DNA of 64,000 nucleotides from Burkholderiales bacterium 70-64. GTDB taxonomy: Bacteria > Pseudomonadota > Gammaproteobacteria > Burkholderiales > Burkholderiaceae_E. Shown here piece by piece: positions 6,141 to 33,923 of the stretch (its first letter is position 1; each line of letters starts with the position of its first letter). Below the pieces are notes generated by a model, which was given only the letters and a program-made list of their open reading frames with translations, made no database searches and was not told where the DNA came from. The stretch lies in the NCBI GenBank assembly GCA_001898645.1, contig MKUQ01000060.1:1-64000 (forward strand), read 5' to 3'. A program made the translations under genes and the position numbers.

Positions 6141-6911
6141 CTACCGCTGCCCGATCCGCCGCGTGATGCTGGTGAAGTCGGCCGCGACTTCGCGCAGCAC
6201 CATGGCGGCGGGCCCTTCGAGGGAGTAGTCGAAGGTTTCGCTGTTGCCGAAGACCGACATCGCGGCCACGATCTGCCCGCGCGAGTTGAGCATCGGCGCG
6301 GCCACCGCCGCGACTCCCGGCAGCAGGTGCCCGGAGTGATTGGCGAGCGACGCTTTCCGGATCGCCTCGAGCTTGAGGTCGAGGTCGCGACGATCGAGGC
6401 GCTCCACGGGCGGCCGCCCCGCGGCATACTCGGCGCGTATCACCGGCGTGACGATGGCCCGCGGCATGTGGGCGGCGAAGATCAGCCCGGAGGCGGTTCG
6501 CAGCAGCGGGAGGGTCGCGCCGACCCGCATCGTGAGGGCGATGGCCTTGCTGCTCTCTTCGATCGAGATGATGACGGGGCCGTAGCTGCCCCACACGGCA
6601 AGCATCACCGATTCGTCCAGCCGGTCCCTCACCCGCTGCTGCAGATCCTGGGCCGCATCCAGGAAATTCGAGCGCCCGATCGCCACCAGCCCCAGCTCGA
6701 TCGCGAACGGCCCGATCTCGTAGGCGAGCGTGGTCCTGTCCTGGCGCACCAGCCCCAGGCGCTGATAGCTGACGAGATATCGATGCGCCGCGCTGGCGGT
6801 CAGGCCGGCATGGGCCGCCAGGTCCTTCAGCGCCAGCGGCACGCTCATCTTCGCCAGCACCTTCAACAGACGGCCGCCCACCTCGATCGACTTGATACCG
6901 GTCTGCGCCAA
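6141..6911 (-). CDS. IclR-family transcriptional regulator
   Basis: A 256-residue IclR-type regulator with an N-terminal winged helix-turn-helix (about residues 5-70: KSIEVGGRLLKVLAKM, then LKDLAAHAGLTASAAHRYLVS) and a C-terminal effector domain (ISIEESSKAIALTMRVG). I chose the TTG at 6911 because AGGAG lies 6 bases upstream and the protein then begins MAQTGIKSIE, as typical IclR proteins do. A GTG at 6929 is the alternative. It is divergent from the ABC-transporter/nitrilase operon starting at 7121 and probably controls it, with an effector related to the transported compound. Confidence 0.9.
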   Translation of the reverse strand: MAQTGIKSIEVGGRLLKVLAKMSVPLALKDLAAHAGLTASAAHRYLVSYQRLGLVRQDRTTLAYEIGPFAIELGLVAIGRSNFLDAAQDLQQRVRDRLDESVMLAVWGSYGPVIISIEESSKAIALTMRVGATLPLLRTASGLIFAAHMPRAIVTPVIRAEYAAGRPPVERLDRRDLDLKLEAIRKASLANHSGHLLPGVAAVAAPMLNSRGQIVAAMSVFGNSETFDYSLEGPAAMVLREVAADFTSITRRIGQR

Positions 6912-7120
6912 AGCCGACTCCTGTGTCACAGCACGACGGAATTTCTCAATGGTGAACGCGTTGAATCGAAGTTTGCCCGTCGCGCACGGTTTGCCGGCAT
7001 ATTCTGCCGTGCCGCAGCCCACTGCATCACCCGATCCGCCATCGACGAGCGCAGCTCGACTCCACCGGCGGCTGGCAATCGACAAGTGGGCGCACAGCAA
7101 CCGAACAGGAGGAGACCGGC
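6912..7120. promoter_or_regulatory. Divergent control region between iclR and the liv-type operon
   Basis: This 209-bp non-coding interval separates divergent genes and must hold both promoters. It is less GC-rich than the flanking genes around 6930-7010, including GGAATTTCTCAATGGTGAAC and a GCATATTC stretch. AGGAGGAGA lies directly upstream of the ATG at 7121 and is a strong ribosome binding site. No perfect palindrome that would define an IclR operator was found by eye. Confidence 0.5.
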
Positions 7121-8407
7121 ATGAACGTCGTCTTGAGCCGAGCAGCGCGGATGGTGCGGGCGCTGGGCATGCTCGCGGCCCTCGCCCTGGGGAGCGGCCT
7201 TGCGCTTGCGCAGGAGCCGATCCGCATCGGCGTGTTCCAGCCCCTCACCGGACCCTTCACCAAGAACGGGGTGGAGCACTGGGAGGCGATGCAGATCGCG
7301 CGCGACATGATCAACGAGCGGGGCGGGATCAACGGGCGGAAGATCGAGTACGTGCTGGCCGACGTGCCCAGCCCCGCGGCCGCGATCAGCGAAACCGAAC
7401 GCGTGATCACCAAGGAGAAGGTGAAGATCACCACCGGATCCGGGCTGTCGCCGCTCGCCATCGCGGTGAGCCAGGCAGCGGAGCGCCACGGGGCCTTTCA
7501 CTGGGAGACGGTGGGCGCTGCGGAGGTGATCACCCGCAGGGGGTTCAAGTACACGTTCCAGGTGGGAGGGGCGTCGCGGCTCTATTCGCAGGCAGCGCTC
7601 GATTTCGCGCTCGACGAGCTTTCCCGGCGCCTGAAGATCGCGCCGAACGACCTGCGGATCGCCCTGCTGTGGGAGAACCGCGCCCTCGGAAAGTCGGTCG
7701 GTGACGGCATCCGCATCCATGCCGCCGACCGGGGCGTGAAGCTGGTGTACGACGAAGGGTATGACCAGTTCCTCACCGACATGACGCCGATCGTGCAGAA
7801 GCTGAAGGACGTGAATCCGGACGTGCTGATCACGATCGGTTACCCCAACGACGTCATCCTGTTCCAGCGCAAGGCGAAGGAGCTGAATTTCTACGTCAAG
7901 GCGCTCATCGGCGTCAGCGGGGGGTATTCGAATCCCGAGCTGCGGGACTCGATCGGGAATTCGGTCTATGGGCTCTTCGTCTCGGAGTTTCCGCCGCGCG
8001 TGAATCCCAAGGCGCTCAAGCCCGAAGCGCTCGAGGCGGCCAACGAGTTCTTCAGGCGCTACGAGGCGAAGATGAAGCGACCGCCCGCCGGCCACGCCTC
8101 TGCCAGCTTCTCCGCGCTGTGGGGCCTCTATACGGAGATCTTCCCCAAGGCGAAGACGTTCGAGCCGAGCGAGCTGAGGGAAATCGCGCTTTCACTCGAT
8201 CTGCCGATGGGCAGCCTGCCCAACGGCAGCGGCATCAAGTTCACCAACCACGACTGGGCCCCGGACAAGAAGGACTTCGGGCAGAACCTGCGCGCGGCGA
8301 TCGGCATCTGGCAGTGGCAGAAGGACGGGAACAACGAAGTCTTTCCCAAGGAGCTGGCCACGCACGAGCCGGTGCTCGTGCCCCTGCCGCCTTGGAGCCA
8401 GCGCTGA
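7121..8407 (+). CDS. ABC transporter periplasmic substrate-binding protein (LivK-type)
   Basis: A 428-residue periplasmic binding protein of the branched-chain amino acid/amide family (Peripla_BP_6 type). Residues 1-30 form a signal peptide ending near LALAQEP. The mature N terminus, IRIGVFQPLTGPFTKNG, is the family's first strand and ligand loop, and REGGING-like sequence follows (INERGGINGRKIEYV). It is first in an operon with two permeases, two ATPases and catabolic enzymes, so it should capture the compound these enzymes degrade. Liv-type receptors in this lineage bind many organic acids, amides and aromatics, so the ligand is unknown. Confidence 0.92.
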   Translation: MNVVLSRAARMVRALGMLAALALGSGLALAQEPIRIGVFQPLTGPFTKNGVEHWEAMQIARDMINERGGINGRKIEYVLADVPSPAAAISETERVITKEKVKITTGSGLSPLAIAVSQAAERHGAFHWETVGAAEVITRRGFKYTFQVGGASRLYSQAALDFALDELSRRLKIAPNDLRIALLWENRALGKSVGDGIRIHAADRGVKLVYDEGYDQFLTDMTPIVQKLKDVNPDVLITIGYPNDVILFQRKAKELNFYVKALIGVSGGYSNPELRDSIGNSVYGLFVSEFPPRVNPKALKPEALEAANEFFRRYEAKMKRPPAGHASASFSALWGLYTEIFPKAKTFEPSELREIALSLDLPMGSLPNGSGIKFTNHDWAPDKKDFGQNLRAAIGIWQWQKDGNNEVFPKELATHEPVLVPLPPWSQR

Positions 8408-8425
8408 CCCGCGGACGGCCGCTCG

Positions 8426-9313
8426 ATGGATACGCTCGCTCAACTGGTCCTTTCGGGGATCCTGGTCGGCAGCATCTACGCCCTGATGAGCGTCGGGCTC
8501 ACCCTCATCTTCGGCGTGCTCCGGATCGTGAATTTCGCTCACGGCGAGTTCCTGATGCTGGGCATGTACGGTGCATGGGCGATGAGCAGGTTCGCCGGGG
8601 TCAATCCCTATGTCGGATTGCTGCTGGTCGTGCCGGCCATGTTCCTGTTCGGCATGCTCGTCTACAAGCTCATCGTGACGCCCGGGCTCGACAAGCCCCA
8701 CCTCGTCATCGTGTTCGCGACCATGGGTCTGTCGATCATGCTGCAGAACCTGGCGCTGATGATCATGTCCGCCGATCTCTTCGACGTGCCGCCGATGTTC
8801 GGCGGACGATCGCTGGGCATCGGGCCGCTCTACGTGAAGACGGAGCTCCTGATCGGCTTCTGCATCGCGCTGGGCGTCACCTTCGCGATGCGGTGGATCG
8901 TGAAGACGACGTATCTCGGAAAGGCGATCCGCGCGACGGTGCAGGACAGGGAGGCCGCCAGCCTGATGGGAATTCCCGTCCATCGCATCTTCCTGATCAC
9001 GTTCGCCAGCGGCTCGGCCCTCGTCGGGCTCGCCGCCTGCGTGATGCTGCCGGTGTTCTCGGTCTTTCCCACGGTCGGGCTGAACTTCGTCCTGATCGCC
9101 TTCGTCATCGTCGTCCTGGGCGGCATGGGCAGCATCGAGGGCGCCCTGCTCGGAGGGATATGCATCGGAGTCGTGCAGTCGATGAGCAGCTACTACTTCG
9201 CGCCCGCGTACGGGCAGCTGTTCTTCTTCATTCTCTTCATGCTGGTCCTGGTCTTCCGCCCTGCCGGTCTCATGGGACAGAAGGGAACGGCCAACCTGGG
9301 CATGAATCCCTGA
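8426..9313 (+). CDS. livH: ABC transporter permease, LivH-type
   Basis: A 295-residue inner-membrane permease of the branched-chain amino acid family with about eight hydrophobic segments. The family signatures LVLSGILVGSIYALMSVGLT at the N terminus, NFAHGEFLMLG, and the cytoplasmic coupling loop with GKAIRATVQDREAASLMGI are present. It begins 18 bases after the binding-protein gene and is followed by the livM-type gene after 9 bases. Together they form the membrane channel of the importer. Confidence 0.93.
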   Translation: MDTLAQLVLSGILVGSIYALMSVGLTLIFGVLRIVNFAHGEFLMLGMYGAWAMSRFAGVNPYVGLLLVVPAMFLFGMLVYKLIVTPGLDKPHLVIVFATMGLSIMLQNLALMIMSADLFDVPPMFGGRSLGIGPLYVKTELLIGFCIALGVTFAMRWIVKTTYLGKAIRATVQDREAASLMGIPVHRIFLITFASGSALVGLAACVMLPVFSVFPTVGLNFVLIAFVIVVLGGMGSIEGALLGGICIGVVQSMSSYYFAPAYGQLFFFILFMLVLVFRPAGLMGQKGTANLGMNP

Positions 9314-9322
9314 GTCGCTCCC

Positions 9323-10351
9323 ATGTCCACCATCGTCAAGGCCCGATACTCCAGCCCCGGCGGCGCGTCCCTGGCCAGGATGCCGAAGTCCGGAACGCTC
9401 TCGTACTTCGAGATCGCATTGCTGGCCGCATGCGTGGGCGTCCTCGTGCTGGGCATTCCGGAAAGCTTCATGGACGTCGTCCTGCTGAGCTTCCTGTGGG
9501 GCGGGCTGGCGCTGGCGTGGAACATCGCCGGCGGATATGCGGGGATGATCTCGTTCGGGCACGCGGCGTTCTTCGGCGTCGGGGCATATACCTCGACCAT
9601 CCTGAGCGTCGATGCGGGGCTGAGCCCGTGGATCGGGATGTGGCTCGGAGCGATCCTGGCGGCCCTCGTCGGCGGCGTGCTGTCGCTGGTCTGCGCGCGG
9701 CTGCGCGGCCCGTTCTTCATCCTCTCCACGCTCGCCACGGCGGAAGTCATCCGGATCTGCGCGCTGAACTGGGCTTCGCTCACGGGCGGTCCGGAAGGCC
9801 TCGCCATTCCGCCGGTTGCAAGCCTCGCGAGCATGGTCTTCGATTCCAAGCAGACATACGCCCTGCTGATGCTGGGCTACCTGGTCCTGATGTATGTCTT
9901 CACCAAGGTTCTCGAGGCGTCGCGATACGGGTTCTACATGTTCGCCGTCCGGGACGACGAGGACGCGGCCGGCGCGGCCGGAATCAACGCGCTCTTCGTG
10001 CGCACGGCGGCGATGGCGCTCAGCGCCTTCCTGACGGCGATCGGCGGCTCCCTCTTCGCCCAATATTTCCTGTATCTCGATCCGACGCACGTCTTCTCCC
10101 TGGAGCTTTCGTTCCAGTTCGCGCTCCTGCCTGCGTTGGGCGGGCTCGGAACGGCGATCGGGCCGGTGCTCGGGGCGTTCGCCATCACGCCGCTGTCCGA
10201 GCTGCTGCGCTCCTATCTCGGCGACTCGGTGGCCGGGCTGCACCTGGTGATCTACGGGGGAGTCGTCATCGTGGTGATGCTCTACTTCCCCGGCGGCATG
10301 GCGGCGGCGCTGAACCGCCTCGCGGCCCGGAAGGGAGGGAAAGGAAAGTGA
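9323..10351 (+). CDS. livM: ABC transporter permease, LivM-type
   Basis: A 342-residue permease partner of LivH. After a cytoplasmic N-terminal extension of about 28 residues there are eight to ten hydrophobic segments. The family features NIAGGYAGMISFGHAAFFGVGAY and the coupling loop RYGFYMFAVRDDEDAAGAAGI are present. The end of the gene overlaps the GTG start of the livG-type ATPase by 4 bases (GTGA). Confidence 0.93.
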   Translation: MSTIVKARYSSPGGASLARMPKSGTLSYFEIALLAACVGVLVLGIPESFMDVVLLSFLWGGLALAWNIAGGYAGMISFGHAAFFGVGAYTSTILSVDAGLSPWIGMWLGAILAALVGGVLSLVCARLRGPFFILSTLATAEVIRICALNWASLTGGPEGLAIPPVASLASMVFDSKQTYALLMLGYLVLMYVFTKVLEASRYGFYMFAVRDDEDAAGAAGINALFVRTAAMALSAFLTAIGGSLFAQYFLYLDPTHVFSLELSFQFALLPALGGLGTAIGPVLGAFAITPLSELLRSYLGDSVAGLHLVIYGGVVIVVMLYFPGGMAAALNRLAARKGGKGK

Positions 10352-11085
10352 CTGCGCTGCTGAAGATGGAGGGCGTCGGCATTTCGTTCGGAGCCCTGCG
10401 TGCCGTTCACGACGTCACCTTCTCGGTCGAGCAGGGCGAGCTCGTCGGGCTGATCGGGCCGAACGGCGCGGGAAAGAGCACGCTGTACAACCTGATGGCC
10501 GGGGCGCTGCGGCCGGACTCGGGCCGCATCGTCTTCGACGGGCGGAACATCGCCGGCCTGAAGCCGCATCACGTGGCGCGCATCGGCATCGCACGGACCT
10601 TCCAGATTCCCAAGCCCTACCGCCAGATGTCGGTGGTGGAGAACGTGATGCTGAGCGCGATGCTGAACGAGCGCTCGGTGTCGAAATCGCGGGAGCGCGC
10701 GGCCGAAGTGCTGTTCGAGGTCGGGCTGGAAAGCTACGTCGATTCTCCCGTGAGCGTCCTCACGACAGGATTGCTCAAGAGGCTCGAGGTTGCCCGGGCG
10801 CTCGCCCTGCGGCCCCGCCTGGTCCTCTTCGACGAGATCATGGCCGGCCTGACGCCCAGCGAAGTCAAGGCGGTCACGGCTCTGGTCGCGAGCCTCCCGG
10901 GACGCGGCATCACCGTGATCTGGGTGGAGCACGTGCTGTACGCGATCATGAATACGGCGCGTCGCATCCTGGTGCTCAATCGCGGAGAGCTGATCGCGGA
11001 CGGTCCGCCGCAGCAGGTCGTGCGGGACAGGAACGTCGTCTCGGCGTACCTCGGGGAAGAGGAGCCGGCCGATGCTCAGGGTTGA
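10348..11085 (+). CDS. livG: ABC transporter ATPase, LivG-type
   Basis: A 245-residue ATPase. Walker A is GPNGAGKST, the Q-loop region contains ARTFQIPKPYR, and Walker B is RLVLFDE with the following His in WVEHVLY. The ABC signature reads LTTGLLKRLEVARAL rather than LSGGQ; glycine is kept, and variants of this kind are known in LivG proteins. GTG at 10348 is chosen because it overlaps the livM stop and AAGGAAA lies just upstream. The C terminus overlaps the livF-type gene by 14 bases. Confidence 0.92.
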   Translation: MTALLKMEGVGISFGALRAVHDVTFSVEQGELVGLIGPNGAGKSTLYNLMAGALRPDSGRIVFDGRNIAGLKPHHVARIGIARTFQIPKPYRQMSVVENVMLSAMLNERSVSKSRERAAEVLFEVGLESYVDSPVSVLTTGLLKRLEVARALALRPRLVLFDEIMAGLTPSEVKAVTALVASLPGRGITVIWVEHVLYAIMNTARRILVLNRGELIADGPPQQVVRDRNVVSAYLGEEEPADAQG

Positions 11086-11776
11086 GAAGCTCAGCGCCTA
11101 CTACGGCGCGACGCAGATCCTCCACGACATCGACATGTTCGTGGAGTCGGGCGAGATCGTCGGCCTGGTAGGCGCCAACGCGGCCGGCAAGAGCACGCTG
11201 ATGTATTCGCTCTCGGGGCTGCGCACACGCTGCACCGGCAGCATCTCCATCGACGGCAGGCGGATCGACGCGCTGCAGGCGGACCAGCGCGTCCCGCTCG
11301 GCCTGGTGCTGGTTCCCGAACGGCGGCGCCTGTTCCCGTTCATGACCGTGCTCGAGAATCTCGAGATCGGCGCCTATTCCGCCGATGCGCGCGCGCATCG
11401 GCGCGAGACGCTCGAGCAGGTCTTCACCCTGCTTCCCCGGCTCGCCGAGCGGCGCGACCAGGAGGCCGGATCGTTGAGCGGGGGCGAGCAGCAGATGGTC
11501 GCGCTCGGCCGCGCACTCATGGCGAGGCCGAGGATTCTCCTGCTCGACGAACCCACGGAGGGGCTTGCGCCGATCTTCGTCAACCTCGTCTACGACCTCG
11601 TTCGTGCCTTGCGCGCACTCGAGCAGACGGTGCTGATCGTCGAGCAGAACGTGCAGCACGTGCTGCGAACGGCCGATCGCGCCTACGTTCTCGAGAACGG
11701 CCGCATCACGATGCACGGCACGGGCGAGGAACTGCTCGGGAACGAAAGGCTGAAGGTCGCGTATCTGGGGCTTTGA
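11072..11776 (+). CDS. livF: ABC transporter ATPase, LivF-type
   Basis: A 234-residue second ATPase of the importer. It shows Walker A (GANAAGKST, with Ala for the usual Gly in the middle), signature SLSGGEQQMVALGRALM, Walker B PRILLLDEPTEGLAP and switch region VEQNVQHV. All catalytic features are intact. It completes the KHMGF set of the importer, and its stop lies just before the NIPSNAP-family gene. Confidence 0.93.
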   Translation: MLRVEKLSAYYGATQILHDIDMFVESGEIVGLVGANAAGKSTLMYSLSGLRTRCTGSISIDGRRIDALQADQRVPLGLVLVPERRRLFPFMTVLENLEIGAYSADARAHRRETLEQVFTLLPRLAERRDQEAGSLSGGEQQMVALGRALMARPRILLLDEPTEGLAPIFVNLVYDLVRALRALEQTVLIVEQNVQHVLRTADRAYVLENGRITMHGTGEELLGNERLKVAYLGL

Positions 11777-11787
11777 CGGAGAGATCG

Positions 11788-12099
11788 ATGATCTACGAAA
11801 TGCGGACGTACCGCGTGAAGGTCCACGCCGGCCCGAGCTTCCTCGAGGTCTACGCGAGTAGGGGCATCCAGATCATCGGCCGCTACGCGAAGCTGGTCGG
11901 TTGCTGGGAAACGGAGTCCGGGAACCTGAACGAAATCGTCTTCATATGGGCATACGACGATTTCAATCACCGGATCGAGCAGCGCAACAAGCTGTGGCGC
12001 GATCCGGACTGGCTGGAATTCGTGCCCTCCATCCGCCAGCACATGGAGCACCAGAGGAGCGCGTTCCTGATGCCAGCGGCATTCTCGCCGCTGAAGTAG
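11788..12099 (+). CDS. NIPSNAP-family protein
   Basis: A 103-residue small protein with a ferredoxin-like dimeric alpha+beta barrel fold. The start MIYEMRTYRVK and the later IVFIWAYDDFNHRIEQR are typical of NIPSNAP domains. The ATG at 11788 is preferred over a TTG at 11773 because GGAG stands in front of it and the family begins here. NIPSNAP proteins often sit in catabolic operons in Burkholderiales, but their biochemical role is not established. It lies between the transporter and the nitrilase, in the same direction. Confidence 0.88.
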   Translation: MIYEMRTYRVKVHAGPSFLEVYASRGIQIIGRYAKLVGCWETESGNLNEIVFIWAYDDFNHRIEQRNKLWRDPDWLEFVPSIRQHMEHQRSAFLMPAAFSPLK

Positions 12100-12135
12100 C
12101 GCGGCTTTCCATTTCCCCGGAACGGAGTCGAATCC

Positions 12136-13206
12136 ATGGTCAACTACCCTGCATTCAAGGTCGCAGCCATGCACGTTGCGCCCGTATTCCTCGATTCGGC
12201 GGCCACCACCGAAAAGGCCTGCTCCCTCATCGAGGAGGCGGCGCGCAACGGGGCGCAGCTGGTCGCCTTCCCGGAGACGTACATCCCCGCCTATCCGGTC
12301 TGGTCGGGGCTGCGCTCCCCGGTCTACAACCACGACATGTTCAAGCGGCTCGCCGCCCAGGCGATACTCGTGCCGGGCCCCGAGGTCGCCCGTCTCTGCG
12401 ATACGGCGCGCCGGTGCGGCGTATTCGTCTCCATGGGCATCAACGAGGGAACCCGCCAGAGCGTCGGGTGCATCTGGAACTCGAACGTCCTCATCGGCGA
12501 CGACGGGTCCATCCTCAATCATCACCGGAAGCTCGTCCCGACGCACTACGAGAAGCTCACCTGGGCGAACGGAGACGGGGCCGGCCTGCGCGTCGTGGAA
12601 ACCAGGCTGGGTCGCATCGGGATGCTGGTCTGCGGCGAGAACACCAATCCGCTGGCGCGCTTCACGCAGATGGCGCAGGGAGAGCAGGTGCACATCTCGA
12701 CGTGGCCTCCGATCTATCCCTACAAGGATCCGGGGGACGGCGCCAACTATCCGCTCAACGAATCCATCTATGTACGGGTGCGTTCCTACTCCTTCGAGGC
12801 GAAGAACTTCAACATCGGGGTGGCGAGCTACATGGATGCGGCGATGCGCAGCGAACTCGTCAAGCTGCACCAGGATGCCGCGCGCCTGCTCGAGTGCAGC
12901 ACGCGGGGCGTGACCATGATCACGGGCCCGAATGCCGAGATCATCGGAACGCCGCTGTGCGAAGAGGAAGGGATCCTCTACGCCGACCTCGATCTCGCCG
13001 ATTGCGTCGAAGCCAAGCAGGTGCACGACATCCTCGGCTATTACAACCGCTTCGATGTCTTCAAGCTGACGGTCGACCGCTCGGCCAACCGCGCGATCAC
13101 CTTCGAGGCCGGCGCCGTCGAGCGCGAGAGCCACCCGGCCGCGAGCGAGCCCAGGCCGGCGCAGGACGAGCGGCCCTCCGGCTCGACGCTGGTATTGACG
13201 AAATGA
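12136..13206 (+). CDS. Nitrilase/cyanide-hydratase family enzyme
   Basis: A 356-residue nitrilase-superfamily hydrolase of branch 1 (true nitrilase) length. The Glu-Lys-Cys catalytic triad is complete: Glu47 in AFPETYIPAYP, Lys132 in NHHRKLVPTHYEKLTW, and Cys166 in VCGENTNPLARF. The AxPETxIPxYP and CxEN contexts are those of nitrilases rather than amidases. The expected reaction is hydrolysis of a nitrile to acid and ammonia. The C-terminal 25 residues are polar and probably disordered. The stop overlaps the amidohydrolase start (ATGA), tying the two steps together. Confidence 0.9.
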   Translation: MVNYPAFKVAAMHVAPVFLDSAATTEKACSLIEEAARNGAQLVAFPETYIPAYPVWSGLRSPVYNHDMFKRLAAQAILVPGPEVARLCDTARRCGVFVSMGINEGTRQSVGCIWNSNVLIGDDGSILNHHRKLVPTHYEKLTWANGDGAGLRVVETRLGRIGMLVCGENTNPLARFTQMAQGEQVHISTWPPIYPYKDPGDGANYPLNESIYVRVRSYSFEAKNFNIGVASYMDAAMRSELVKLHQDAARLLECSTRGVTMITGPNAEIIGTPLCEEEGILYADLDLADCVEAKQVHDILGYYNRFDVFKLTVDRSANRAITFEAGAVERESHPAASEPRPAQDERPSGSTLVLTK

Positions 13207-14180
13207 TCACCGACATCCACTGCCACTACGTGCCCGAGGAGTTCCTCGGTTTCGTCACCGGACGCGAGGAGTTCGCCGTCGCCCTCGAGGACGGAGAGGG
13301 GGAGTCCGCCGAATTCGTCATTCGGGGCGCGAGGTTCGGCCTGTCGAAGACGTTCTTCGAGCTGCCCAGGCAGATGGCACGCATGGAGGCGCTCGGCATA
13401 GACCGGACGATCCTGTCTCTGGCGACGCCGTTCATCGACTATCGCCTGGAGCCGGGCCTGGCGGTGAAGGCGGCGCGCATCTTCAACGACGGGCTGGCGG
13501 CCGTCGTCACCCCGAACAAGAAGCGCCTCGGGGGCTGGGCGTTCCTGCCGATGCAGGATCCGGAGGCCGCCGCCGCGGAGCTGAAGCGCTGCGTTCGCGA
13601 TTTCGGCTTCGTGGGCGGGCACGTCGCCTCGAACGTGAACGGCGTCTACCTCCACAATCCCGCCTTTCGCGCCATCTTCGAGGCGGCGGTGGAGCTGGAC
13701 GTGCCGCTGTTCGTGCACCCCGCCGATCCTCTCGGCAAGGAGCGGATGCGGGATTTCGAGCTGGCCGTGGTAGCGGGGTACCTGTTCGACAACACGATCA
13801 ACTTCCTCGGGCTGATCTGCTCCGGGTTCCTCGATCAATGGCCGCGCCTGAAGCTCGTCTGCGCGCACACCGGGGCGTTCGCGCTGGTGCTGCGCGGGCG
13901 GATGCAGCGGGAGGTCGACACCAACCCGCGGCTGTCCTCGATGCTGAAGGCCCCGGTCGGCGATTATCTCCAGCGCCTGTTCTACGACACCGTGTGCTTC
14001 GAGCCGATGATGCTGCGGTACGCGGCGACCGTCGTACCCGTGAGCCACCTGCTGATGGGGAGCGACGCGCCGTTCCCCCTGGGCGAGCCGGACCCCGTGA
14101 ATTTCGTGCGCCGCAGCCTCGATACGCGGGAGGCCGAAGCGGTGCTGAAGCGGAACTTCGAGTTGCTCACCCTGGGCTAG
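13203..14180 (+). CDS. Amidohydrolase (ACMSD-type decarboxylase family)
   Basis: A 325-residue amidohydrolase_2 protein related to aminocarboxymuconate-semialdehyde decarboxylase and gamma-resorcylate decarboxylase. Metal ligands are recognisable: DIHCHYVP at residues 4-10 (HxH), His in LFVHPADP, His in VCAHTGAF, and Asp in LLMGSDAPFPLG. Family members decarboxylate or hydrolyse ring or chain acids. Because it is coupled to the nitrilase gene it probably acts on a product in the same pathway. It starts inside the nitrilase stop codon. The specific substrate cannot be assigned. Confidence 0.88.
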   Translation: MITDIHCHYVPEEFLGFVTGREEFAVALEDGEGESAEFVIRGARFGLSKTFFELPRQMARMEALGIDRTILSLATPFIDYRLEPGLAVKAARIFNDGLAAVVTPNKKRLGGWAFLPMQDPEAAAAELKRCVRDFGFVGGHVASNVNGVYLHNPAFRAIFEAAVELDVPLFVHPADPLGKERMRDFELAVVAGYLFDNTINFLGLICSGFLDQWPRLKLVCAHTGAFALVLRGRMQREVDTNPRLSSMLKAPVGDYLQRLFYDTVCFEPMMLRYAATVVPVSHLLMGSDAPFPLGEPDPVNFVRRSLDTREAEAVLKRNFELLTLG

Positions 14181-14182
14181 CC

Positions 14183-14728
14183 ATGCAGATCCATCGCATT
14201 CTCCTCGTCAGGGACACGGCCATCGCCGTCTCGAGAGGCCTGGCGGACCGGCCCGTGATGCGCGTGGCGGCCTGCGCCGTGATCCGCAACCCGCTGGCGG
14301 CGAGCCGGACGGACGACCTGGCGCCGCTCGTCGATCTCGGTGCGCAGCTGGGCGGCCTGCTCGCCGGCGAGGCGCTGGGCCTGCTGGCCAATCCGGTCGT
14401 CGCCTACGGGAAGGCGGCGATCGTGGGTGCGGACGGCGACATCGAGCATGGCGCGGCGCTGCTGCACCCGCGCATGGGCAAGCCCATCCGCGATGCGATC
14501 GGAGGCGGCCAGGCGCTGATTCCTTCCAACGTGAAGATCGGCGGGCCGGGGTGCGTCGTCGACGTTCCGCTCGGGCACAAGGACGACGCCTGGTCCTTCG
14601 ACGAGATCGACACGATGTCCGTCATGGTTCCCGACGGGCCGCGTCGTGACGAGATCGTCGTGGCCGTCGTCGTGTCGGACGGCGGCAGGCCGAGGCCGCG
14701 GGTGCGCCCCGTGCGCATCGCGGCCTGA
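14183..14728 (+). CDS. Amino-acid-synthesis family protein (AA_synth, DUF1185)
   Basis: A 181-residue protein of the AA_synth (DUF1185) family, recognised by IHRILLVRDTAIAV at the N terminus, VAACAVIRNPLA, AYGKAAIVGADGDIEHGAALLHP and DIPLGHKDDAW-like sequence (VDVPLGHKDDAWSFDEID). Family members occur in catabolic operons of Burkholderiales and have no firmly proven reaction. It is the last gene of the iclR-controlled liv/nitrilase unit, starting 2 bases after the amidohydrolase stop. Confidence 0.87.
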   Translation: MQIHRILLVRDTAIAVSRGLADRPVMRVAACAVIRNPLAASRTDDLAPLVDLGAQLGGLLAGEALGLLANPVVAYGKAAIVGADGDIEHGAALLHPRMGKPIRDAIGGGQALIPSNVKIGGPGCVVDVPLGHKDDAWSFDEIDTMSVMVPDGPRRDEIVVAVVVSDGGRPRPRVRPVRIAA

Positions 14729-14828: not shown

Positions 14829-16367
14829 TCATGCCGCGGTGGGCATGCCGAAGTCGGCGTCGTGACGGGTGTCGGCCGGCCACCGCTGCATCACGCTCTT
14901 CTGCCTGGTGTAGAAGCGGAACCCTTCCTCGCCGTAGACGTGCAGGTCGCCGAACAGGCTGTTCTTCCAGCCGCCGAAGCCGTGCCAGGCCATCGGAACG
15001 GGAATGGGGACGTTGACGCCGACCATGCCGACCTGGACCCGCCGGGCGAAATCGCGCGCGGCATTGCCGTCGCGGGTGAAGCAGGCGACGCCGTTGCCGA
15101 ATTCGTGGTCGTTGACCAGATCGATCGCTTCGGAGAGGCTGCGAACCCGCACGCAGCCGAGGACCGGCCCGAAGATCTCCTCCCGGTAGATGCGCATCGA
15201 CGGCTTCACGTGGTCGAACAGCGTCCCTCCCACGAAGAAGCCCGATTCGCATCCCGGGACCGTGACGCCGCGCCCGTCCACGACGGGCGTCGCGCCCTCC
15301 TCGATCCCCAGCCCGATGTAGCGATGGACGCGTTCGAGCGCGCTGCGCGAGACCAGCGGACCCATCTCGACGCCGGCATCCATGCCGTTTCCGATCCTCA
15401 GCGTCCGCGTCCGGTCTGCGAGCCCCGGCATGATGCGGTCCGCGACATCGCCCACGAGCACCGCCACGCTGATCGCCATGCAGCGCTCGCCTGCCGAGCC
15501 GTACGCGGCGCCGACCAGGGCGTTGACCGCCTGATCGATGTCCGCATCGGGCATGATGACCATGTGATTCTTGGCGCCGCCCAGGGCCTGGACGCGCACG
15601 CCCCGCCGGGCGCCCGCTTCGTAGACATGGCGGGCGATGGGCGTCGATCCGACGAAGCTGATCGCCGCCACGTCGGGATGGTGGAGCACGGCGTCGACGG
15701 CTGCCTTGTCGCCCTGGACGACGTTGAACACCCCGTCCGGCAGCCCCGCCTCGCGCAGCAGCTGCGCCATGTACACGCTCGCGGAGGGGTCCCGTTCGCT
15801 CGGCTTGAGGACGAACGCATTGCCGCAGGCGATCGCCACCGGGAACATCCAGCAGGGGACCATCACCGGGAAGTTGAACGGCGTGATGCCGGCGACGACG
15901 CCGAGCGGCTGGCGCATCGTCCAGTTGTCGATTCCGCCGCTCACCTGCTCGGTGTGGCTGCCCTTGAGGAGCTGCGGGGCTCCGCACACGAACTCGACGA
16001 TCTCGATGCCGCGCGTCACTTCTCCCTGGGCGTCGGCGAACGTCTTGCCGTGCTCCGCCGTGATGATTCGGGCGAGCTCGTCGCGGTGGCGGTTCATGAG
16101 CTCGAGGAAACGATTCAGCACCCGTGCGCGCCGGATCGCAGGCGTATCGGCCCATGCCGGAAATGCCGCCCGGGCCGCTGCCACGGCCTGCTGCACCTCC
16201 GCCGGCGTGGCAAGCGAGAGGCAGCGCGCCGCTGCGCCGGTGGCCGGGTCGTGGATCGGTGCACGGGCGCCGCTGCCCGCGACCTCCTGCCCGCCGATGA
16301 AGTGGCCGACCGTCTCCGGAGCGGAACGGGTACCGGACGCTGCGCTGCTTTCCATGCCGACTGTCAT
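14829..16367 (-). CDS. mmsA: Methylmalonate-semialdehyde dehydrogenase (CoA-acylating)
   Basis: A 512-residue CoA-dependent aldehyde dehydrogenase of the MmsA/IolA group, which converts methylmalonate or malonate semialdehyde to propionyl- or acetyl-CoA. Characteristic segments are [17 protein letters not shown] (with Asn165), [15 protein letters not shown] and catalytic Cys296 in [10 protein letters not shown]. The end [18 protein letters not shown] is typical of MmsA. AGGAG precedes the chosen ATG at 16367. The gene is divergent from a LysR regulator with a strong palindrome between them, which suggests substrate-controlled expression. Confidence 0.93.
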
Positions 16368-16469: not shown

Positions 16470-17453
16470 ATGGACCCTGCCGACGATCCGCTGCGCAGCG
16501 AGCTCGTGTGGTCGCGCGTGCGCGCCCTTGCCGCGGTGGCGACGCAAGGCAGCCTCACGGCCGCCGCCCGCCATCTCGGCGTGTCCAAGGCCGCGGTGAG
16601 CCAGCGCGTGAGCGAGCTGGAGCGCATCGTGGGGGCGCCTCTGCTGCAACGTACGACCCGTTCGGTCCGCCTCACGCACGTCGGGCAGCAGCTCGTCGAC
16701 GAGACCAGCGAATGCTTCGCGCAGGTCGCCGCCAGCGTCGCGGCCGCTCGGGACCTGGCCGCCCAGCCGCGCGGAGTCGTGCGCGTGTCGGCACCCGTGG
16801 CGCTCGGCAGGCAGAGCGTCGCGCCGGCGCTGCAGCCCTTCCTTCGCGCCTATCCGGATATCCGCGTCGAGCTCGATCTGTCCGACCGGTTCGTCAACCT
16901 GGCCCAGGAGGGATTCGACCTCGCGCTGCGGCACACCAGCGCTCCCCCGGAGCGCCTGGTGGCGACCCTGCTCGCCCCGACGCGCACGCTGCTGGTCGCC
17001 ACGGCCGCGTATCTGCGGCGGCGGGGAAATCCCGAGCACCCGTCGGCGCTTTCCGAGCACGATTGCCTCACCTATCTGCGGCCCGGGCCGACGGCGTGGT
17101 TCTTCGAGTCCGTTCCTGCCGCCGGCCGGTCCCAGCGCAAGCGCGAGCGCGTCACGGTCGGCGTGCGCGGACCGCTGCGCGCCAACAACTCCGAGGTGTT
17201 GCGCGACGCGGTCCTGTCCGACCTCGGGATCGCCCAGGTGCCCGATTTCAGCGCAGCTGCCGCGCTGCGTGCCGGCAGGCTGCGCGAAGTCCTGCCCGAG
17301 TGGCGTCCCGTCGGGTTCTTCGGCGACGCCGTCTATGCCATCCGGCCGTGGAGCCGCGGAACCCCGCGCGCCGTCCGGCTGCTCATCGAGCACCTGCGGC
17401 GCGAGTTCGCGGCGATCTCTCACCGCGAGTGGCCGGGCGCAAAGCGCTCGTAG
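16470..17453 (+). CDS. LysR-family regulator, probable controller of mmsA
   Basis: A 327-residue LysR regulator. Residues about 13-72 form the winged helix-turn-helix ([25 protein letters not shown]), and residues about 95-305 the periplasmic-binding-like effector domain. The closing [11 protein letters not shown] segment resembles the CrgA-like subgroup. It is divergent from mmsA. Its 3' end overlaps the 3' end of the convergent double-MarR gene by 71 bases (17383-17453), which is unusual and could allow transcriptional interference. Confidence 0.92.
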
Positions 17454-18465
17454 GCCTGCCCGGCATCGCGGACGAGAGCAGCGCGGTCCAGTACCGGTCG
17501 TCCTGGAAGATGCGCCGCCCGTGGTCGTCGAGCCTGCCCATGTATTCCTGGAAGGCGCCCAGCTCCCGTTCCCCGAGCACGCTGAGCAGCTCCTGCTCGA
17601 TGGAGCATCTGATCCCGTCGATCTGCGTGTAGACCTTCCTGCCCTGGGCGGTGAGCGCGATCACGCTGCGGCGGCCGTCCGAAGTATCGCTACGCCTTCG
17701 CACCAGCCCTTTCTCGACCAGGTGATCGACCGCGCGCGTGACCTTGTCCGCCTTGATGCTCATGCGCTTCGCGACCTCGGTCGGCGACGTCGGCTGGAGG
17801 CTCCCGATGGTGATCAGGGTGCGCCAGGACGAAACGGTGAGGCCGAACCGGACGCGGAACAGCCTCGCCACGGGTCTCGTGCTCAAGGCCGCCAGGCGGG
17901 AGAAACGGAAGGTGACGCGCTGTTCGAGCGGCATGCCCGTGCGATCCGCTCGCGGCGCCCGGGCGGGCTGCGCTGCCGGACGGCCCTGCTCGAGGTCGCG
18001 GCCGGTCCCGTCGCCCTTCCCGGCATTTCGTGCCGGGACGCCGGCGCCCGGCAGATGCCCCAATCTCGCGAGGAGGTCGACGAGCGTTCGCCGCTCGTTC
18101 GAATCCAGCGGCGACAGCAGTTGCTCCATCGCCTGCTCGAGGTCGCCCTCCGTGCGCCGCAGCAGTTCGGCGCCGTCTGCGGTCAGCACGATGACGTGGC
18201 CGTTCCTCCCGACGTTTCCGCCGGCCCGCTCGACCAGGCCATGGTCGGCGAGACGCCGGATCATGGCGCCCGCGGTCGCGCGGTCGGATCCGATCGCCCT
18301 TCCGATCGCTGCCTGGCTCAACCCGCCTCCTGCGGCCAACGCCGTCAGCACGTAGTACTGCGACGCGGTGAGTCCGAACCCGGAGAAGCGGCGGTTGAGC
18401 AGGCCGACGGCGGCCTGATGCGCCTGCTTCAGCAGGACATCCGCTCTGGCCGAGGGCCTGTTCAC
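17383..18465 (-). CDS. Tandem (two-domain) MarR-type regulator
   Basis: A 360-residue protein with two consecutive MarR winged-helix domains, about residues 8-125 and 180-325, where normal MarR proteins have one and are about 150 residues long. The recognition segments are [20 protein letters not shown] and [20 protein letters not shown], each followed by a wing ending in IVLTADG or IALTAQG. The linker is polar and Arg/Ala-rich. No stop or frame change interrupts it, so it is a genuine single frame resembling a covalent MarR dimer. The start is the GTG at 18465, inside an 18-bp inverted repeat that may be its own operator. It lies downstream of the UbiD/TctC genes in the same direction. Confidence 0.85.
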
Positions 18466-29956: not shown

Positions 29957-30936
29957 CCGCTCCTCGCCTCGTTCCACAGGTCGTCGACCAGCCGGCGCGC
30001 CATGCCCTGCATCACCCGCCGGCGGTACTTCGGCGCGGTGACGGTGGTGCGCAGCAGGTTGGCCGTCTTGCGCAGGGCGAGCGAGAGGCTCGCGGCCGCT
30101 TCGTTGCCCCACGGCCGGCCGGCCAGCTCGGCGGTGGGAACCATCAGCGGCGCCGAATTGGTGCCGGTGATCGCCACCCTGAGCTCGCCGATGACGTCGC
30201 CGTCGCGGCGCAGCGCCGCGGCCACGCCGGCCAGCGGGAAGTCGACGGCATCGCGCACGCGCGCCTTGGCATAGCCGGCGCGCCGCCCGTTCGTCGGCGG
30301 CAGCACCACCGCGGCCAGCGCCTCGCCCGCGCCCAGGGTCAGGTGCTCGGCGCCGCTCTCGCGGTACAGCTCGGCCAGCTTGATGCGGCGCGCGCTGTCC
30401 GGGCCGGCCACCACTGCCTCGGCGTCGAGCACCATCAGCACCGGCGCGATGTCACCGTGATAGGTGGCGTAGCAGCGGTCGCTCTTGACCACCACGTGGC
30501 ACTTGTCGCCCTTGTACTTCAGGCACCAGCCGTTGCCTTCGCGCCACCAGTCGCTCTGGTTGTAGAAGACGCAGCGGGTGTCCTGGCACAGGTTGCCGCC
30601 CAGCGTGGCCGCGGCGCGATGGGTGGGGCCGGCCACCGCCAGCGCCGCCTGGGCCACTGCCGGGTAGTCGTCGAGGACGTCGGGGTGGCGGGCCAGGTCG
30701 GCCAGCGTCACGCCTGTGCCCAGCCACAGGGCGCCTTCGATGCGCCGCACGGCGACCAGGTCGGTGACGGCGCTCAGGTCGATCAGGTCGCTCGGCTCGC
30801 CGAGGCCGCGGCGCAGGTTGACCAGCAGGTCGGTGCCGCCGCCCACGAAGCGCGCGCCGGGCAGCTCGGCCTTGAGCCGCACCGCCTCTTCCAGCGTCTC
30901 CGGGCGGTGGCAGCGGAATTCGGGCATCAGGTTCAT
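29953..30936 (-). CDS. hcrB: 4-hydroxybenzoyl-CoA reductase beta (FAD) subunit
   Basis: A 327-residue FAD-binding subunit of the molybdenum hydroxylase family. The FAD motif is [13 protein letters not shown], and [12 protein letters not shown] follows. Beyond normal CoxM-like subunits it contains a loop with cysteines 117, 122, 138, 146 and 155, matching the extra [4Fe-4S] cluster known only in 4-hydroxybenzoyl-CoA reductases. The enzyme reductively removes the para-hydroxyl to give benzoyl-CoA, using low-potential ferredoxin. Its start overlaps the stop of the alpha gene, and it overlaps marR at the other end. Confidence 0.95.
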
Positions 30937-33247
30937 GACTGCACTCCGTCGCGGGCGTCGAGCAGGTCGCCCACGCACTCGGGGCTCAGCGGCATGGTGT
31001 ACGTGCGCACCCCGACCGCCTCGTGCACCGCGTCCATCACGGCCGGCAGGAAGCCGGCCAGCATGCCTTCGCTGGCCTCCTTGGCGCCGAACGGCCCGTT
31101 GGGATCGATGCTCTCGACGATGATCACCTCGATGTCCGGGCTCTCCACCATCGTGGGCACGCGGTAGTCGAGCAGGTTGCCGTGCATCATGCGGCCGTCG
31201 TCGAAGCGGGTCTGCTCCGAGAGCGCCTGGCCCATGCCCATCCACACCCCGCCCTGGACCTGCCCCTCGACCGCCAGCGGGTTGAGGGCGCGCCCGACGT
31301 CGACCGCCACCCAGACCTTCTCGGCAGTCACCTTGCCGGTGACTTCGTCGACCGAGCATTCGACCACCTGGGCGGCATAGCAGAAGCCCATGGTGGCGCC
31401 GATGGCGCTGGCCCGGATCTTCTTGTCGCCCATGAACTCGGTGGGGCTGGTGAAGGTGCCCTTGACCGTGATCGGACCGGTGTCGATCAGCGCCGCCTTG
31501 ACCACTTCGCGAAACGGCAGCTCCCTGTCGGTGCCGGCGATGCGGTAGACCTCGCCTGCGCACTCCACGTCGTCGGCGCTGGCCTCCAGCTTGCGGGCCG
31601 CCGCCTCGATGAGGATGCGCCTGAGCTGGGTGGCGGCGTCGATGGCGGCGTTGCCGACCATGAAGGTGACGCGCGACGAATAGCTGCCGTTGTCCTTGGG
31701 GGTGAGCGCACTGTCGGCCGACACCACCCGCAGCCGGTTCCAGTCGACCCCCATGACCTCGGCCACCATCTGCGCGGCCATGGTGTTGGAGCCCTGGCCG
31801 ATGTCGGCCGCGCCGGTCAGCACGGTGATGCCGCCGTCGAAGTCGAGCCTGAGGTTGACGGTGGCGTGCGGCTCGCCCGTCCAGTGCTTGGGCGTGGTGG
31901 TGCCGGAGACGAAGTGCGAGCAGGCCACCCCGAGCCCGCGGCCCTTGGGCATCTTGCCGCGCCGCTCGGCCCACCCCGAGGCCTTCATGACCTTCTCCAG
32001 GCATTCGGGCAGGCCGTAGCTCATCACCCGCTGCGCGTACGCCGTGATGTAGGGCACGGTGGGCAGCAGGTTGATCTGGCGCACGGCGAAGTGATCGAGG
32101 CCGAGCTCGTCGGCCATCTCGTTCATCAGCGCCTCGAACGCGGCGCGCGCATCGACGGTGCCGTGGCCGCGCTGCGCGCCGCACGGCGGGGTGTTGGTGT
32201 AGACCCGCCAGGCGTCGTGCTTGATGGCCGGGATCTCGTAGATGCCGTGCAGCAGCGACCCGGTGTAGAGGATGGTGATGATGCCGTAGCCGGCGTAGCC
32301 TCCGCCCTCCTGCGTCGCCTGCAGGTGGCAGGCGGTGAGCTTGCCCTCGCGCGTCATGCCGAGCTTGACCGTGACCCGGGTGTCGGGACGGCCGCGATGG
32401 GCGATGAAAGTCTCCTCGCGCGTCTGCAGCAGGCGCACCGTGCCGCCGGCCTTGCGCGCCAGCAGGGCGGCGATGATCTCGAAATGCAGGGCCTCGGTGC
32501 GCTGCCCGAAGCCGCCGCCCAGGAAGGGCTTGACCACGCGGATGTGCGCCTGCTCCATCTCCAGGCATTGCGCCACCTTCAGGAGCACGTAGTAGGGCAC
32601 CTGGGTGGTGGTGTGCAGGGTCAGGTGGCCGCGCTCGGGGTCGTATTCGGCCAGGGTCGCATTGGGCTCCATCTGGGCATGGCAGACCTCGGCGAAGCGG
32701 TAGCTCTTCTCGCGCACCAGGTGGGCGGCGGCGAAGCCGGCCTCGGTGTCGCCGAACTCGGCGTGCACCTCGCGCAGCACGTTGTTGGGCTTCTCGATGT
32801 GGATCGGCTCGGCGCCCGGCTTCATCGCCTTGCGCGCGTCGAAGTAGGCCGGCAGCTTCTCGTACTCGACGCGGATCAGCTTGAGGGCGCGCGCCGCGGT
32901 GGCCTCGTCGACCGCCGCCACCGCCGCCACCGGGTCGCCGCGATAGCGCACCTTCCCGCGCGCCAGCGGGAACTCGTTCTCGGCGATGGGCAGCACGCCG
33001 AACGGCACCTTGCAGTCCTCGCCCGTGCACACCGCCACCACGCCCGGCAGCGCCTCGGCCGCCGAGGTGTCGATGGACAGGATGCGCGCGTGCGGCAGCG
33101 GCGAGCGCAGGATGCGGCCGCACAGCGCGCCGACGGCCGGCAGGTCGGCGGTGTACTTCGCCTTGCCGGTGACCTTGTCGACGCCGTCGATGAGCGGCGT
33201 GCGCACGCCCACCGTGCCGACGCGGACCTTCTCCAGCTGCGTGATGC

Positions 33248-33251
<4 letters not shown>
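30933..33251 (-). CDS. hcrA: 4-hydroxybenzoyl-CoA reductase alpha (molybdopterin) subunit
   Basis: A 772-residue molybdopterin-cytosine-dinucleotide subunit, about the length of characterised HcrA proteins. Recognisable cofactor segments include [36 protein letters not shown] and the Glu-containing active-site segment [14 protein letters not shown] near the C terminus. It carries the substrate site for 4-hydroxybenzoyl-CoA. Both ends overlap neighbours by ATGA, so hcrC, hcrA, hcrB and marR are translationally coupled. Confidence 0.95.
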
Positions 33252-33799
<548 letters not shown>

Positions 33800-33909
33800 C
33801 GGCCGCCTCCTGCTGGTCTGCCGTCGGGTGCGGCGGCCGGCCTGACAGGGGCCGCCGCCTACATTGTTGCGTAGGTAAACATTCTGGTCGCGAGCGGTTG
33901 CTGCTGCCC

Positions 33910-33923
33910 TTGACGTGGATCAA
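33910..33923. promoter_or_regulatory. FNR/Anr-type box upstream of hcrC
   Basis: TTGACGTGGATCAA matches the FNR consensus TTGAT-N4-ATCAA at 9 of 10 specified positions. It is centred about 117 bases upstream of the hcrC start. A CCTAC-N8-GTAGG imperfect dyad (33858-33875) lies between the box and the gene and could be a MarR site. Confidence 0.7.

What the first reader, a model, noticed from the sequence alone, without database searches (positions are those of the whole stretch)
7121..14728. Transporter plus nitrilase, ACMSD-like amidohydrolase, NIPSNAP and AA_synth operon
A full liv-type importer is transcribed with a triad-complete nitrilase and two poorly characterised enzymes, under a divergent IclR. 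It reads as uptake and stepwise degradation of a nitrogen-containing organic compound (nitrile-type), but the combination is not one I can name.
Basis: partly seen in the sequence, partly recalled or inferred. Interest (0 to 1): 0.65.

Follow-up and report, generated by a model that had tools for sequence, protein, structure and literature searches.

The report
Nitrilase-fronted variant of a catabolic operon
A bacterium carries a rare uptake-and-breakdown gene set, probably for a nitrogen-ring compound, into which a nitrile-splitting enzyme has been slotted, so that it may use a cyano form of the compound.

Summary
The operon is a mosaic. In 6 of 13 related loci SBP-livHMGF-amidohydrolase-AA_synth is one conserved block without nitrilase, NIPSNAP or IclR; livF abuts the amidohydrolase there. 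In 4 of the 7 loci with AA_synth a molybdenum hydroxylase follows (the one tested is nearest to quinoline 2-oxidoreductase among solved structures). AA_synth and NIPSNAP recur elsewhere in N-heterocycle-type clusters. So the core is most likely a route for an N-heteroaromatic carboxylate, and NIPSNAP-nitrilase an acquired front end. Measured against drift among relatives, the receptor has drifted most of the seven shared genes, with an excess at LivJ ligand-contact columns on the narrowest definition only; the amidohydrolase shows no excess. That fits a new imported compound turned by the nitrilase into the old substrate. The amidohydrolase has the ACMSD fold and metal ligands but lacks an ACMSD substrate arginine; the receptor lacks the LivJ amino-acid signature. 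The substrate is unproven. New variant of a known kind, moderate interest.

The parts
6141..7100 (-). divergent IclR-family regulator (true start probably inside the ORF, as the HTH begins at residue 71)
   Evidence: Pfam IclR_C 66 bits, HTH_IclR 41.7 bits; no IclR match at E<=1e-5 in the 13 related loci; a LysR is divergent in four of them
7121..8407 (+). periplasmic receptor (SBP) of the liv-type importer
   Evidence: Peripla_BP_6 130 bits; 69-71% to the SBPs of five relatives, 22-24% to LivJ/LivK; 6 of 11 LivJ-contact columns changed
8426..9313 (+). permease livH-like
   Evidence: BPD_transp_2; 72-76% to the five close relatives
9323..10351 (+). permease livM-like
   Evidence: BPD_transp_2; 68-73% to the five close relatives
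10348..11085 (+). ATPase livG-like (GTG start)
   Evidence: ABC_tran, BCA_ABC_TP_C
11072..11776 (+). ATPase livF-like
   Evidence: ABC_tran
11788..12099 (+). NIPSNAP protein, first gene of the inserted block
   Evidence: PF07978 87.6 bits; not matched at E<=1e-5 in any of the 13 amidohydrolase loci; aligned with 7 others
12136..13206 (+). nitrilase, triad E47-K132-C166, motif CGENTN; second gene of the inserted block
   Evidence: CN_hydrolase 136.5 bits; PDB NitA E=9e-57; triad
13203..14180 (+). ACMSD-fold amidohydrolase, metal ligands H6 H8 H172 H222 D288, equivalent of human ACMSD R47 missing
14183..14728 (+). AA_synth (PF06684) protein with invariant Y75-G76-K77 and E88-H89
   Evidence: 183 bits; PDB 2qtp E=1e-44; alignment of 14
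14829..16331 (-). neighbour: CoA-acylating (methyl)malonate-semialdehyde dehydrogenase mmsA; membership in the system uncertain
   Evidence: TIGR01722 682 bits

Best explanation
A mosaic catabolic operon. Core (shown by conservation): receptor, livHMGF, an ACMSD-fold metal-dependent decarboxylase or hydrolase, AA_synth. Inferred role of the core: import of an N-heteroaromatic compound, (de)carboxylation or cleavage of an ortho-oxo or ortho-hydroxy ring carboxylate by the amidohydrolase, and processing of a later, probably ring-opened or enamine-type intermediate with AA_synth. In four relatives a molybdenum hydroxylase (and in two of them a RidA protein) lies in the same cluster. In the window that front end is not adjacent; NIPSNAP and a nitrilase have been placed between livF and the amidohydrolase. 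Proposed working: a cyano-substituted version of the compound is imported by an altered receptor, the nitrilase turns C-CN into C-COOH plus ammonia, and the acid enters the old amidohydrolase/AA_synth steps; IclR controls it. Anatomy and mosaic: shown. Triad and metal ligands: shown. Ring type, nitrile front end, regulation and order of steps: inferred.
For: Block conserved in 6 of 13 loci without NIPSNAP/nitrilase/IclR; livF and amidohydrolase abut there. Mo-hydroxylase next to AA_synth in L068, L070, L071, L078; for the L071 large subunit the best solved relatives are quinoline 2-oxidoreductase, a CoxL chain and 6-hydroxypseudooxynicotine dehydrogenase. RidA in L068 and L078. AA_synth: 6 of 7 records opened from AA_synth hits are Mo-hydroxylase or trigonelline-type clusters; PMC7913881 (passages) calls TgnF of the trigonelline route a homologue of the PF06684 protein HcdD. 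NIPSNAP: 5 of 6 records opened are trigonelline-type (one of them only in part) or within 6 kb of a Mo-hydroxylase. Nitrilase stop overlaps the amidohydrolase start by 4 bases. Receptor drift: non-identity of the window to five relatives is 1.84 times that among them, against 1.00 for the amidohydrolase and 1.14-1.43 for the other five shared genes; 6 of 11 LivJ-contact columns changed against 39 of 275 elsewhere, p=0.003. A nitrilase (36%) also lies about 5 kb from the amidohydrolase in L079.
Against: No substrate is identified. The window operon has no ring hydroxylase or ring-opening oxygenase; the genome's Mo-hydroxylases are at most 42% to the L071 one. The nitrilase's 50-58% relatives sit in unrelated contexts, some tied to malonate, so it may act on a small aliphatic nitrile. 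The pocket enrichment weakens with wider windows (p=0.08, 0.18, 0.22) and the contact list is recalled. L069 and L074 show no adjacent Mo-hydroxylase; L067 has another one on the other strand. L065 shows AA_synth, and L094 NIPSNAP, outside such clusters. The neighbourhood samples are small, not independent, and have no random-gene background.
Confidence: 0.42

Rival explanations
1. Short aliphatic nitrile route: the nitrilase yields a C3 acid such as malonate (from cyanoacetate) or beta-alanine, finished by the neighbouring mmsA; the amidohydrolase handles a side step.
For: The ORF of a 58% nitrilase relative of the same genus overlaps by 17 bases that of a malonyl-CoA decarboxylase and has a liv importer nearby on the other strand; in Variovorax the nitrilase lies about 7 kb from malonate decarboxylase genes; in Bradyrhizobium near an mmsA at 63%; mmsA is next to the window operon.
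Against: mmsA is on the other strand, and among the 13 related loci the only mmsA match is a 37% one at L078; does not explain the conserved amidohydrolase and AA_synth.
Confidence: 0.2
2. The nitrilase and NIPSNAP are passengers: recently inserted genes co-transcribed by chance, while the operon still degrades the relatives' compound.
For: Absent from all 6 full relatives; nitrilase relatives with other neighbours are common (833 plasmid records with a match; 8 opened).
Against: Overlap with the amidohydrolase start, intact triad, GC3 0.88 like its neighbours, and the drift of the receptor.
Confidence: 0.2
3. The core is not for N-heterocycles but for a carbocyclic aromatic or an amino-acid-like compound.
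For: ACMSD-fold enzymes also decarboxylate benzoates; PF06684 was linked to branched-chain amino acids by genome context (PMC2954203, passages); L065 context is aminotransferase and M20.
Against: LivJ signature missing; Mo-hydroxylase and RidA neighbours; AA_synth contexts.
Confidence: 0.18

Closest known systems
Liv-amidohydrolase-AA_synth(-Mo-hydroxylase-RidA) cassette of Bradyrhizobium sp. URHD0069 (L068) and other records, mostly labelled Alphaproteobacteria (L067, L069-L071, L074, L078; L070 is a MAG labelled Marinimicrobia); not described in the papers met
   Same: seven genes in the same order, 50-76% identical, in six loci; L078 is cut
   Different: no NIPSNAP or nitrilase; LysR instead of IclR; Mo-hydroxylase downstream in 4 loci
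Trigonelline-type (tgn) cluster, seen in S. meliloti pSymA, Rhizobium SL42, Pararhizobium gei (the label rests on recall of the tgn genes and on PMC7913881)
   Same: AA_synth and NIPSNAP together with an importer
   Different: LLM monooxygenase, flavin reductase, alpha/beta hydrolase and aldehyde dehydrogenase are absent from the window operon; importer of another type
ACMSD (2-amino-3-carboxymuconate-6-semialdehyde decarboxylase)
   Same: fold (Z 40.4, rmsd 2.3 over 323 residues), five metal ligands, probable R239 equivalent R233
   Different: 25% identity; R47 of human ACMSD replaced by G, A or P in all 11
Nitrilases NitA (6zby) and Nit6803-type (3wuy)
   Same: triad and length
   Different: CGEN instead of C(A/W)EH; 222.6 bits against the Nit6803 equivalog cut-off of 502.6
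Picolinate pic cluster (PicC decarboxylase, amidohydrolase family; PMC10142695, passages)
   Same: logic: pyridine acid, picolinate dehydrogenase PicA, amidohydrolase-family decarboxylase PicC
   Different: no PicB or PicD-G genes in the window operon

Membership tests
Nitrilase (EC 3.5.5.1) | Glu-Lys-Cys triad in a CN_hydrolase domain | tested here: met
   E47, K132, C166 invariant in 9; Pfam 136.5 bits
Nitrilase (EC 3.5.5.1) | hydrolysis of a nitrile to acid and ammonia | not testable with these tools
   needs assay
Nit6803 equivalog TIGR04048 | score above curated cut-off | tested here: not met
   222.6 against 502.6 bits
ACMSD | fold and metal ligands HxH, H, H, D | tested here: met
ACMSD | both essential arginines (R51 and R239* of the Pseudomonas enzyme, title of 4ifk; equivalence of R51 and human R47 recalled) | tested here: not met
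   the column of human R47 is G/A/P in 11 of 11 (alignment, columns); R233, invariant, is taken as the R239 equivalent only from the equal offset at both ends of the match
AA_synth PF06684 | profile match | tested here: met
   183.2 against 27 bits
Liv amino-acid importer | LivJ-type receptor above cut-off, with T102 and E226 (contact list recalled) | tested here: not met
   72 against 477 bits; V131, A133, G267 at the A100, T102, E226 columns, S79 kept
Trigonelline tgn cluster | LLM monooxygenase plus flavin reductase in the operon | tested here: not met
   all ten genes of 6141-14728 fall in other families

The most novel reading that the evidence does not exclude
A modular catabolic operon whose front end has been exchanged: a molybdenum hydroxylase in relatives, a nitrilase here, with the receptor re-tuned to match, so that a natural heteroaryl nitrile (for instance a 3-cyano-2-pyridone alkaloid of the ricinine type) is turned into the ring carboxylate that the conserved ACMSD-fold decarboxylase takes; and AA_synth is not for amino-acid synthesis but an enzyme of N-heterocycle breakdown.
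Probability: 0.17. Interest if true: 0.68.

Novelty: new variant of a known kind. Interest (0 to 1): 0.48.

Why it matters
It gives a testable role to two badly named families (AA_synth, NIPSNAP), both of which recur beside N-heterocycle-type enzymes in the records opened here, and shows how a degradation route may gain a new substrate by adding one front-end enzyme and altering its receptor. If a heteroaryl nitrile is the substrate, it would supply a whole gene set for a step that I know (recalled) only from single nitrilases.

Tried and rejected
Tried, with little or no result: literature search for nitrilase + NIPSNAP + amidohydrolase (0 papers); DUF1185/PF06684/'AA_synth'/'amino acid synthesis protein' (54 papers with at least one term, 30 listed, two of them opened for passages); 'amino acid synthesis family' (1 listed, not opened); TgnF + trigonelline (1 listed, the paper already opened); PicC (1 listed, passages read); B. 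bronchiseptica nic locus (7 listed; only PMC10142695 among them was opened, for PicC); homarine operon (1 listed, not opened); ricinine + nitrilase (6 listed, none opened); cyanoacetic acid + nitrilase + malonate (0); nitrilase with cyanopyridine/nicotinate/decarboxylase/gene cluster, at least 4 of 5 terms (8 listed, none opened). No paper was read in full. 16S rRNA was not found in the genome, so lineage was judged from rpoB: 68% to E. coli, against 61% (L068) and 60% (L071) for carriers of the cassette; that of L074 came in four pieces of 40-61%. Signature loops of CO dehydrogenase-type large subunits (recalled) were sought by simple patterns and not found in five proteins; left open.

Considered and set aside: ordinary branched-chain amino-acid operon (receptor test fails); trigonelline cluster proper; picolinate cluster; the Nit1C nitrilase cluster (recalled: radical SAM and acetyltransferase partners, not among the operon's families); mmsA as a fixed part (opposite strand, not conserved).

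Results against my reading: pocket enrichment of the receptor holds only for the narrowest definition, and the control on each of the five relatives could count only 5 of the 11 columns; L065 is an AA_synth locus, and L094 a NIPSNAP locus, without N-heterocycle enzymes; L069 and L074 lack an adjacent Mo-hydroxylase; 6 of 13 loci (L072, L073, L075, L076, L077, L079) have the amidohydrolase without matches to importer genes or AA_synth (L072 and L073 are contigs of about 6 kb; L076 ends 0.4 kb after it).
Full report
OBSERVATION. The operon is as described. Pfam places every gene above the cut-off of its family: divergent IclR 6141-7100; receptor, two permeases and two ATPases 7121-11776; NIPSNAP 11788-12099; nitrilase 12136-13206; Amidohydro_2 13203-14180; AA_synth 14183-14728. 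The nitrilase triad is E47, K132, C166 with E139. The downstream neighbours are a convergent mmsA (TIGR01722, 682 bits) and a LysR-type ORF (family not scanned), then a two-domain MarR protein.

THE OPERON IS A MOSAIC. A scan of one genome per species with the amidohydrolase gave 13 loci (it starts from exact peptide patterns, so it finds close relatives only and the number is a lower bound). In 6 of 13 (L067-L071, L074) all seven genes SBP-livH-livM-livG-livF-amidohydrolase-AA_synth follow each other, 50-76% identical to the window. L078 is cut by its contig end and shows amidohydrolase-AA_synth. At E<=1e-5 none of the 13 has a NIPSNAP match and one (L079) a nitrilase match, at 36% and about 5 kb away. 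In the six, livF and the amidohydrolase abut (from an overlap of 1 to a gap of 11 bases); in the window 1,426 bases with NIPSNAP and nitrilase lie between them, and the nitrilase stop overlaps the amidohydrolase start by 4 bases. The divergent regulator is LysR in L067, L069 and L071 (Pfam), and in L068 a protein of the same sequence cluster; no IclR was matched.

LINEAGE. Only the window genome among 74 genomes of its family has the amidohydrolase at E<=1e-40, and only it among 398 sampled of its phylum at E<=1e-45. Its RpoB is 68% identical to E. coli's; those of two carriers labelled Alphaproteobacteria are 61% and 60%, and a third came in four pieces of 40-61%. Horizontal gain is the simplest reading; no tree was made.

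WHAT THE CORE MAY DO. In 4 of the 7 loci with AA_synth (L068, L070, L071, L078) the next two genes are the 2Fe-2S and molybdopterin subunits of a molybdenum hydroxylase; the FAD subunit is near in L068 and L070 and a RidA-family gene in L068 and L078 (Pfam was run on the L071, L068 and L078 examples, the others rest on similarity). The L071 large subunit's best solved relatives are quinoline 2-oxidoreductase, a CoxL-type CO dehydrogenase chain and 6-hydroxypseudooxynicotine dehydrogenase. L067 has a different Mo-hydroxylase (35%) on the other strand; L069 and L074 show none adjacent. AA_synth elsewhere: of 7 plasmid records opened from AA_synth hits (387 records matched), four are 6-hydroxynicotinate-reductase clusters with Mo-hydroxylase parts, one a Rieske plus Mo-hydroxylase cluster, one a trigonelline-type cluster on S. 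meliloti pSymA, one neither. The seven are not independent (two are Sulfitobacter). NIPSNAP: of 6 records opened (280 matched), two are trigonelline-type with AA_synth, one a partial such cluster without a listed AA_synth or LLM gene, two lie within 6 kb of a Mo-hydroxylase, one neither. PMC7913881 (passages) calls TgnF of the trigonelline route a homologue of its PF06684 protein HcdD, and reports that a TgnF-like stimulation could not be shown for HcdD; PMC2954203 (passages) argued for amino-acid metabolism from context. The label trigonelline type rests on that passage and on recall of the tgn genes.

ENZYMES. The amidohydrolase model (mean pLDDT 89.6) matches ACMSD best (Z 40.4, rmsd 2.3, 323 residues; isoorotate decarboxylase next at Z 35.9). 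H6, H8, H172, H222 and D288 are invariant in 11, and so is R233, the likely counterpart of R239 of the Pseudomonas enzyme (by offset only); the residue at human R47 is G, A or P in all 11. So: ACMSD-like, probably a decarboxylase of another acid. AA_synth has invariant Y75-G76-K77, E88-H89 and R103 in 14 sequences, which looks enzymatic.

RECEPTOR. It is 69-71% to the five close relatives and 22-24% to LivJ/LivK. At LivJ contacts (list recalled) S79 is kept; A100, T102 and E226 are V, A and G. The five relatives are 79-86% to each other. Relative to the drift among the five, the window's non-identity is 1.84 for the receptor, 1.43 livH, 1.30 livF, 1.21 AA_synth, 1.15 livM, 1.14 livG, 1.00 amidohydrolase. 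Window-only changes hit 6 of 11 contact columns and 39 of 275 others (Fisher p=0.003); with columns widened by 1, 2 or 3 it fades (0.08, 0.18, 0.22). The same count for each of the five relatives gives 0 of 5 contact columns, but only 5 columns are countable there because the window is then among the others. This fits a changed ligand in front of an unchanged enzyme; it is suggestive, not proof.

NITRILASE. Eight relatives of 50-54% over the full alignment (51-57% by tblastn) were opened out of 25 listed and 833 records matched; in none was the core cassette found. They sit beside LysR, CmpA/NrtA-type importers, acetate symporters, once an aldoxime dehydratase with a liv importer, once about 7 kb from malonate decarboxylase genes. 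The ORF of a 58% relative in a genome of the same genus overlaps that of a malonyl-CoA decarboxylase, with a liv importer nearby. An IclR match (39%) followed by a nitrilase (42%) and a receptor gene recurs in another genome of the genus, so the IclR may have come with a nitrilase.

VERDICT. Real, well-formed, rare in the searches made; a known kind of thing (catabolic operon) in a new variant. The anatomy is firm, the ring chemistry and the nitrile step are inference.

Noticed in passing
window 17383-18465: MarR-family protein of 360 aa with two MarR stretches in one chain.
   Followed up: no
window 30933-33923: Molybdopterin large subunit (minus strand), 35% to the relatives' hydroxylase, beside a PCuAC copper chaperone, a MarR and an NnrS gene.
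   Followed up: partly
L097 6001-11225: S. meliloti pSymA cluster GntR, AA_synth, alpha/beta hydrolase, flavin reductase, LLM oxidoreductase, aldehyde dehydrogenase, NIPSNAP, ABC: a candidate trigonelline locus that includes a NIPSNAP gene.
   Followed up: partly
L069 9112-10398: 428-aa protein with three Rid (L-PSP) stretches in one chain near the cassette.
   Followed up: no
L067 15282-18296: Molybdopterin subunit with a CoxG domain in the same ORF, 1004 aa.
   Followed up: no
L056 9181-11575: Nitrilase ORF overlapping a malonyl-CoA decarboxylase ORF, hinting at a malonate-forming nitrilase.
   Followed up: partly
L064, L090, L091, L092: Recurring cluster 6-hydroxynicotinate reductase, UPF0280, two AA_synth genes, with ABC importer and/or Mo-hydroxylase genes.
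   Followed up: no
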